In this document: positions 11,297 through 15,616 of the stretch, piece by piece
Numbering within the stretch: position 1 is the stretch's first letter
How the letters are laid out: the number at the start of each line of letters is the position of its first letter
IMG/VR virus record: IMGVR_UViG_3300030107_001340
Span: 1 to 53,718 of that record
Source: a virus
DNA length: 53,718 bases
Strand: one strand, 5' to 3'
The notes under the pieces: generated by a model
Seen by the model: the letters and a program-made list of their open reading frames with translations, nothing else
Databases searched by the model: none
Told to the model about the DNA's origin: nothing
Made by a program: the position numbers and the translations under genes

Positions 11297-12409
11297 TCAC
11301 TTTCCTGTTCGGCACTTGGAGGTGCTTGTATCATGCTTCGCCCTTTCAGTCAATGCATAATTTGCACTTGTGTACGTATTTTTCATATACGGTTTAACAG
11401 ACTGTGGATTATTGTGTCCTGTAACTGACATGATCTGTGCCATACCGACACCTGCCTCTATCATTTCTGTTGTGCCTGTCCTCCTGAGATCCATTAGCCG
11501 TAGATCCTTTGGTAGTCCTGCTTTTTCCATGACCACCCTGCCCATAGTAGACATACCTTCCAGTGTATATGGATGGAACTGCCCCTCTCTAGGTCTAGGT
11601 CTAGGTGCTACATACTTTTGAAAACCAAAGTCATCTTTTTGATCTAGCAGCATTGGATATAAATCATTACTGATGGGCAGAGATACTTGCGCTCTACGTT
11701 TGCTTTGCTCAAGGTTTAACCTGCGATTGTCAAAGTCAAACATGTCCCATTCAAGTAACCTCATATCACCTAATCTCTGACACCACTCGTATGTCATCTG
11801 CACTATCAAGCCTATGTTGCGGGTAGAGAAATCACTGTATGCTTCATCAAGAAACTTTATTACTTGCTCTTTACTCCACATTACTTTGCGTTGTCTTGGT
11901 GACTTCCTACGAATACTTGAGAAGGGATTGAACTCAGTATACTCCATATCAATAGCGTAACGATACAGCCGTGACGATACAGTAGCGACATGATTTGCAA
12001 AGTGTATGCCCCTACCAATCCAGTCTTCATATGCAAGTTTAGCTTGTCGTGTAGATACTTTTTTGATTGGGCAGTCGCCCAAGCTCTCCAGTAATACAGA
12101 TAAAAAGTATTGATAATCTACTTTAGTTTTATGCTTTAACATATTGAAATCACTAGATTTATAGTAGGAATCCATCAACATAGACAAGGTGCTGCTGCCT
12201 GTTAGTACTACAATCTTTGCTTGCTCTTTACGCCATGCATCAATTTGTTTGTTTAATATTTTAGCCTGTGCTTTTGCCTCCTCAAAATTTCTACCAAGTT
12301 CCACTCGTTCAACCACCCCAGTATCTACTAGACGTTGGGGTGGATTGAAACGATAGTGGACTATACCATTAGCCAGCTTACGGGCTTGTGTATATCGTGG
12401 AAGTTTCAT
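11297..12409 (-). CDS. int: Tyrosine recombinase (integrase)
   Basis: This 370-aa protein has an Arm/SAM-like N-terminal half (SAM-like helices around 70-165) and a catalytic domain from about 175. The visible catalytic set is R212 (QRLGD), a Lys near 237, R309 (MDLRR), H332 (VTGHNN) and nucleophile Y341 (KPYMKNT). The box II histidine is replaced by M306 where most integrases have HxLR. It lies inside the replication operon between primase and the DUF932 gene, with no flanking intergenic space for an attachment site. It suggests temperate capacity or resolution of genome multimers. Confidence 0.9.
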   Translation of the reverse strand: MKLPRYTQARKLANGIVHYRFNPPQRLVDTGVVERVELGRNFEEAKAQAKILNKQIDAWRKEQAKIVVLTGSSTLSMLMDSYYKSSDFNMLKHKTKVDYQYFLSVLLESLGDCPIKKVSTRQAKLAYEDWIGRGIHFANHVATVSSRLYRYAIDMEYTEFNPFSSIRRKSPRQRKVMWSKEQVIKFLDEAYSDFSTRNIGLIVQMTYEWCQRLGDMRLLEWDMFDFDNRRLNLEQSKRRAQVSLPISNDLYPMLLDQKDDFGFQKYVAPRPRPREGQFHPYTLEGMSTMGRVVMEKAGLPKDLRLMDLRRTGTTEMIEAGVGMAQIMSVTGHNNPQSVKPYMKNTYTSANYALTERAKHDTSTSKCRTGK

Positions 12410-15468: not shown

Positions 15469-15476
15469 TTTAATGT

Positions 15477-15604
15477 GGGGAAGGTAGGGATCGAACCTAC
15501 CTTAGATAGTGAAGAGGTAAAACACTATCTTGCATCTATATCTGGCTTGTGTGTACCCTCTTAATACACTCGCGATAGATACATTAGCTCTTCCAGAGTT
15601 CCCC
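15477..15604 (-). ncRNA. tRNA-like structured RNA with predicted kissing loop (128 nt)
   Basis: Numbering is 5' to 3' on the minus strand. GGGGAA (1-6) pairs with TTCCCC (123-128). GTAGG-TTCGATC-CCTAC (105-121) is a normal tRNA T-arm. A 3-4 bp D-like arm (7-17) contains GG in its loop. The central arm pairs 22-30 with 66-74 and is topped by hairpin 36-40/50-54. A variable-like arm pairs 75-82 with 94-101. Loop AAGAGG (43-48) is perfectly complementary to CCTCTT (88-93), a 6-bp kissing interaction. No standard anticodon loop is found, no CCA is encoded, and it is too short for tmRNA. It lies between two early ORFs, so processing from the leftward transcript is implied. Confidence 0.7.
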
Positions 15605-15616
15605 ATAATTCTATGT

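What the first reader, a model, noticed from the sequence alone, without database searches (positions are those of the whole stretch)
15477..15604. tRNA-like RNA of 128 nt with a predicted kissing loop
A perfect tRNA-type T-arm and six-pair acceptor stem enclose a D-like arm, a double-storey central arm and a long variable-like arm. The loops of the two long arms are complementary over six bases (AAGAGG with CCTCTT). No normal anticodon loop is present, and it is too short for tmRNA. It lies between coding genes. I know of no described RNA class with this layout; it may be a tRNA mimic, a decoy for host tRNA enzymes or an unusual tRNA with an insertion.
Basis: partly seen in the sequence, partly recalled or inferred. 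Interest (0 to 1): 0.85.

Follow-up and report, generated by a model that had tools for sequence, protein, structure and literature searches.

The report
Phage tRNA mimic with kissing loops
A phage of the marine HMO-2011 group encodes a 128-130-letter RNA that looks like a tRNA without a decoding loop and appears to lock two of its arms together; the same blueprint occurs in phage T4's long-known but unexplained 'species 1 RNA', and many other phages carry oversized tRNA-like RNAs that standard tRNA finders miss.

Summary
The feature is real. On the minus strand, 15605-15476 can form a tRNA-type T-arm (6 bp, loop UUCGAUC), an acceptor stem (UGGGGAA/UUCCCCA), a small GG-bearing D-like arm, a two-storey central arm and an 8-bp variable-like arm whose loops are complementary over six bases. 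It is not a tRNA, tmRNA or Rfam RNA, and does not look like an attP fragment. No relative of the sequence was found, so covariation in this RNA cannot be tested.

The layout has a precedent. T4 'species 1 RNA' (rnaC, function unknown) has the same order of parts. In 13 divergent rnaC homologs its central and variable loops pair 6/6 in every sequence, with compensatory changes in two pairs. A third RNA (L155) has a 10-base kissing match in equivalent arms, though its identity is uncertain. An rnaC covariance model does not detect the window RNA: layout is shared, homology is not shown.

A pattern search also revealed dozens of oversized tRNA-like RNAs (100-190 nt), mostly in tRNA clusters of large phages.

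Best reading: a stable, host-processed, non-decoding tRNA mimic of the T4 rnaC type. Its cellular role is unproven; decoy or titrator of tRNA-acting host factors is my leading guess.

The parts
15476..15605 (-). whole tRNA-like RNA (130 nt with the outer U:A pair; 128 nt from G1)
15599..15605 (-). acceptor 5' strand UGGGGAA (U may be position -1)
15476..15482 (-). acceptor 3' strand UUCCCCA (A may be the discriminator, followed by C74)
   Evidence: A73 and C74 are common in other long tRNA-like RNAs
15588..15598 (-). D-like arm CUCU-GGA-AGAG with GG in its loop
15531..15583 (-). two-storey central arm: 9-bp outer stem, internal loop, 5-bp inner stem, 9-nt loop
15557..15562 (-). kissing partner AAGAGG in the central loop
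   Evidence: sequence
15504..15530 (-). variable-like arm, 8-bp stem and 11-nt loop
15512..15517 (-). kissing partner CCUCUU in the variable-like loop
   Evidence: sequence
15483..15501 (-). T-arm GGUAGG-UUCGAUC-CCUACC
   Evidence: matches T-arms of annotated phage tRNAs

Best explanation
A phage-encoded, non-decoding tRNA mimic of the T4 species 1 RNA (rnaC) type. Inferred steps: it is cut out of an early leftward operon transcript by host RNase P at the acceptor 5' end and trimmed at the 3' end like a tRNA; the acceptor/T-arm handle stabilises it; the kissing of the central and variable-like loops packs the two long arms side by side into a compact body. My best guess for the job of that body is to occupy or titrate a host protein that acts on tRNAs, such as a tRNA-processing enzyme or a tRNA-directed defence nuclease (about 0.2 on its own). 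Shown: the predicted architecture, and the identity of layout with rnaC. Inferred: transcription, processing, the kiss in this particular RNA, and the function.
For: Architecture and non-chance tests. T4 rnaC has acceptor, two-storey central arm, long variable-like arm and T-arm in that order. Across 13 rnaC homologs the kissing helix is 100% paired with 2 of 6 pairs compensated; structure-wide 18 pairs change on both sides against 7.8 in shuffles, and sliding the partners destroys it. The rnaC outer central arm is replaced in Melville, Kosakonia 305 and MY02, yet the loop pairing is kept. L155 has a 10-nt loop-loop match in corresponding arms. Long tRNA-like RNAs are real as a group: 55 of 192 unassigned T-arms not chosen by the search pattern have a distant 7-bp acceptor partner, against 3.4% with shuffled strands. 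In the pattern-found RNAs C74 is nearly universal and U(-1) and A73 are the commonest bases, as in the window. All stems are intact, unlike a relic.
Against: No homolog of the window RNA was found in 17 related records, by IMG/VR patterns or in GenBank phages, so no covariation in it. The rnaC model gives no credible match to the window. The other long tRNA-like RNAs show no more loop-loop matches than chance. It stands alone in a genome without tRNA genes, unlike most of the others. No expression data. T4 rnaC's own function is unknown (PMC9697503, PMC3014915), so the function step has no direct support.
Confidence: 0.6

Rival explanations
1. A cis-acting processing or punctuation element: a tRNA-shaped RNase P substrate that cuts the early polycistronic mRNA between genes, with no function after release.
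For: It sits between small genes on the same strand. Mycobacteriophages carry minimal acceptor plus T-arm minihelices between genes, with a compensatory change in the T-stem. Acceptor/T-arm minihelices are classical minimal RNase P substrates (own knowledge).
Against: A minihelix would suffice; the D-like arm, two long arms and loop-loop match are unexplained extras.
Confidence: 0.2
2. attP: the 3' part of a host tRNA carried by a temperate phage, with the rest a coincidence.
For: The phage has a tyrosine integrase (11297-12409), and relatives do carry tRNA 3' halves as attP: CRP-3 tRNA-Met (PMC6918029) and CRP-738, apparently tRNA-Asn.
Against: Those copies keep an intact CCA end; the window has CCCCACAUU. 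The 19-mer from T-loop to acceptor occurs in no tRNA among 84,980 species genomes (one hit, not called a tRNA). The 5' acceptor partner and three arms would be chance.
Confidence: 0.07
3. A degenerating or insertion-bearing tRNA gene.
For: True tRNA T-arm and acceptor; the acceptor resembles alphaproteobacterial tRNA-Gln (own knowledge).
Against: All stems are intact; excision of any one segment gives no default ARAGORN tRNA; no anticodon arm.
Confidence: 0.06
4. Chance folding of an intergenic spacer.
For: Stability rank 8 of 3248 windows, not unique; single sequence.
Against: T-arm plus acceptor plus three arms plus loop match; none of 60 resampled genomes reached even the T-arm/acceptor score.
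Confidence: 0.05

Closest known systems
T4 species 1 RNA / rnaC (NC_000866 70908-71046)
   Same: ~130-140 nt; tRNA acceptor and T-arm ends; no anticodon arm; two-storey central arm with 5-bp inner stem and 8-9-nt loop; long variable-like arm; 6-bp kissing pairing between the two loops; phage-encoded.
   Different: No detectable sequence homology; T4 acceptor carries two U.U mismatches; no D-like hairpin predicted in T4; T4 copy lies in a tRNA cluster, the window copy in an orphan early region of a phage without tRNAs.
Oversized tRNA-like RNAs in tRNA clusters of large phages (found here, e.g. L056, L066, L094, L113, L125)
   Same: tRNA acceptor and T-arm, 100-190 nt, extra arms, missed by ARAGORN at default, often GGGGAA acceptor (partly by selection), C74 at the 3' end.
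   Different: Different internal architectures; no general kissing-loop signal; one group has an anticodon-like 7-nt loop and a conserved UACAAGC block.
tmRNA
   Same: tRNA-like acceptor and T-arm with a reduced D region.
   Different: No tag ORF, too short, no tmRNA call.
Canonical tRNA (class II)
   Same: Acceptor, T-arm, variable-like arm.
   Different: No anticodon arm; far too long; fails ARAGORN and Rfam tRNA.

Membership tests
T4 species 1 RNA (rnaC) layout | tRNA-type acceptor and T-arm enclosing a two-storey central arm then a long variable-like arm | tested here: met
T4 species 1 RNA (rnaC) layout | 6-bp kissing pairing between central and variable-like loops | tested here: met
   6/6 complementary in the window; covarying in rnaC. 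For the window this is complementarity only, not covariation.
T4 species 1 RNA (rnaC) homologs | detectable homology (covariance model of 13 rnaC) | tested here: not met
   therefore not filed as an rnaC homolog
T4 species 1 RNA (rnaC) layout | stable mature RNA made in infection | not testable with these tools
   needs infected cells; shown for T4 in PMC9697503
tRNA | 5-bp anticodon stem with 7-nt loop; ARAGORN/Rfam RF00005 match | tested here: not met
tmRNA | tag-encoding ORF and tmRNA model match | tested here: not met
attP in a tRNA gene | identity to the 3' end of a bacterial tRNA including CCA | tested here: not met
   exact match over 19 nt only, one genome per species

The most novel reading that the evidence does not exclude
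Phages widely encode a class of non-decoding, kissing-loop tRNA mimics (T4 species 1 RNA being the first-seen member) that arose repeatedly in unrelated phages to capture or disarm host tRNA-directed enzymes.
Probability: 0.25. Interest if true: 0.92.

Novelty: new variant of a known kind. Interest (0 to 1): 0.74.

Why it matters
T4 species 1 RNA is an old orphan of phage biology: annotated, stable, function unknown. Seeing the same blueprint, with an independent kissing sequence, in an unrelated 54-kb phage suggests the shape is selected rather than a T4 oddity, and gives precise mutations to test. The wider set of oversized tRNA-like RNAs in large phages means tRNA annotation of phage genomes misses a group of structured RNAs, some with anticodon-like loops lacking the usual U33.

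Tried and rejected
R1, a model of the window RNA alone, against HMO-2011 relatives: no hit. Exact patterns of the T-arm and D-arm in IMG/VR: 0 hits and 2 chance hits that look coding. Neighbour proteins as baits: no relatives. ARAGORN with introns or relaxed scores: only spurious calls. Intron-containing tRNA reading of the other long RNAs: anticodons inconsistent among homologs. tRNA-likes with 8-nt anticodon loop (L049, L051) are a different thing, probably frameshift tRNAs. Kissing loops as a general feature of all long tRNA-likes: rejected, counts close to expectation. The first count of distant acceptor partners was biased because loci were fetched by pattern; replaced. Paper searches found no description of a kissing loop in T4 rnaC, but the library lacks most subscription papers, including the early T4 RNA work.

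Full report
What is there. The minus strand of 15605-15476 reads UGGGGAA CUCU-GGA-AGAG CUAA [UGUAUCUAU CGCGA GUGUA-UUAAGAGGG-UACAC ACAAGCCAGAU AUAGAUGCA] [AGAUAGUG-UUUUACCUCUU-CACUAUCU] AA [GGUAGG-UUCGAUC-CCUACC] UUCCCCA. The minus strand is the right one: neighbouring genes run that way and the T-loop only makes sense there. T-arm and acceptor together beat all 60 Markov-resampled windows. Raw stability is high but not unique in this genome.

What it is not. ARAGORN, tmRNA search and all 4227 Rfam families are negative. Removing any one segment does not leave a default tRNA. attP is unlikely: attP copies in relatives CRP-3 and CRP-738 keep a tRNA 3' end with CCA (CRP-3 integration into tRNA-Met is experimental, PMC6918029), while the window ends CCCCACAUU, and its T-loop-to-acceptor 19-mer is in no tRNA of 84,980 species genomes.

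Host genome. The window is an HMO-2011-type phage with DUF932, tyrosine integrase, DnaB-like helicase, family A DNA polymerase and ribonucleotide reductase. The RNA lies in a stretch of orphan genes, and no relative of the RNA was found in 17 records, by IMG/VR patterns or in GenBank phages. Its own covariation is therefore untested.

Finding the layout elsewhere. A degenerate pattern (GGGGAA, 81-141 nt, T-arm, UUCCCC) in IMG/VR returned 78 stretches; almost all are not ordinary tRNAs but oversized tRNA-like RNAs of about 110-162 nt, mostly in tRNA clusters. A control acceptor (GGAGGA) returned 29. The fetched loci hold 126 distinct such RNAs of 100-190 nt, up to five per locus. Because loci were fetched by pattern, I recounted only T-arms with other acceptors: 55 of 192 have a distant 7-bp partner, against 3.4% with shuffled strands. 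In one group (27 sequences) a 14-sequence alignment has 22 of 29 predicted pairs with compensatory change, including an anticodon-like arm.

T4 rnaC. T4's species 1 RNA has acceptor, two-storey central arm, long variable-like arm and T-arm. Its variable loop CGUCAA is complementary to UUGACG in the central loop. BLAST finds matches to rnaC in 720 phage records. In 13 divergent homologs the kissing helix is paired in every sequence; Yersinia fHe-Yen9-01 has UUGAUG/CAUCAA and Klebsiella MY02 UUGGCG/CGCCAA. The alignment used for counting was a sequence alignment, not fitted to the structure, though I chose the structure after looking at the T4 sequence; each of the two compensated kissing pairs rests on one sequence. 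Yen9 also restores a full 7-bp acceptor in place of two U.U mismatches. The window has the same elements at the same places with an unrelated kissing sequence. A third RNA, L155, has loops AUGUGCCAAU and AUUGGCACAU in corresponding arms; its host is unknown and it may be something else, for example an archaeal intron-bearing tRNA.

How far the parallel goes. A covariance model of rnaC does not detect the window RNA, so I claim shared layout, not membership by descent. Across the 125 long RNAs tested, loop matches of six or more are little commoner than chance (observed 5, expected 2.6), so the kiss marks the rnaC type, not all long tRNA-likes.

Mechanism. Most likely a processed, stable tRNA mimic with a kiss-locked two-arm body. 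The function of rnaC is unknown (PMC9697503; PMC3014915). Occupying a tRNA-acting host factor is a guess from shape. Processing punctuation is the main rival; attP, tRNA relic and chance are unlikely.

Noticed in passing
window 13300, 14598, 15453, 15799, 17369, 18286, 18528 (-) and 19505 (+), 16 bp each: Eight exact copies of the palindrome TGTCCAAGGTTGGACA, several just upstream of a ribosome-binding site in the early region; 17 hits with up to 2 mismatches against 0.01 expected. Looks like a repressor operator or stoperator-like repeat. One copy starts 7 nt after the 3' end of the tRNA-like RNA.
   Followed up: partly
L062, L063, L064, L070, L072, L080, L094, L113, L126, L151: A group of 120-145-nt tRNA-like RNAs in large-phage tRNA clusters with a D-arm, a 5-bp/7-nt anticodon-like arm often lacking U33 (CGGUAAA, CAGUUAA) and a conserved two-storey block ending UACAAGC; strong covariation.
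   Followed up: partly
L046 ~1484-1527; L048; L055 (mycobacteriophages Cuke, Indlulamithi, Rope): Unannotated intergenic minihelix GGGAC-linker-T-arm-GUCCCAC, up to four places per genome, with a compensatory T-stem change (GGUAGG/CCUACC to GGGAGG/CCUCCC); resembles a minimal RNase P substrate.
   Followed up: partly
L054 ~554-626 (crAss-like Bohxovirus PV686213): An unannotated RNA of about 75 nt with GGGAGAG/CUCUCCC acceptor and perfect T-arm, not called as a tRNA.
   Followed up: no
L155 106-231: GC-rich tRNA-like RNA in an AT-rich viral contig without tRNAs in the fetched stretch; two arm loops complementary over 10 bases.
   Followed up: partly
L049 3518-3596 (-), L051 763-841 (+): tRNA with an 8-nt anticodon loop (CAGU), a likely frameshift-type tRNA.
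   Followed up: no
CRP-738 (MZ892992) near 2948 (-): Probable attP: a tRNA-Asn-like 3' half with intact CCA end, about 1.3 kb from the integrase.
   Followed up: no
L056-L162, oversized tRNA-like RNAs: Motif GUUACUUC occurs in 14 of 123 and UACAAGC in 24 of 123 of the RNAs, against 0.1 and 0.9 expected.
   Followed up: partly
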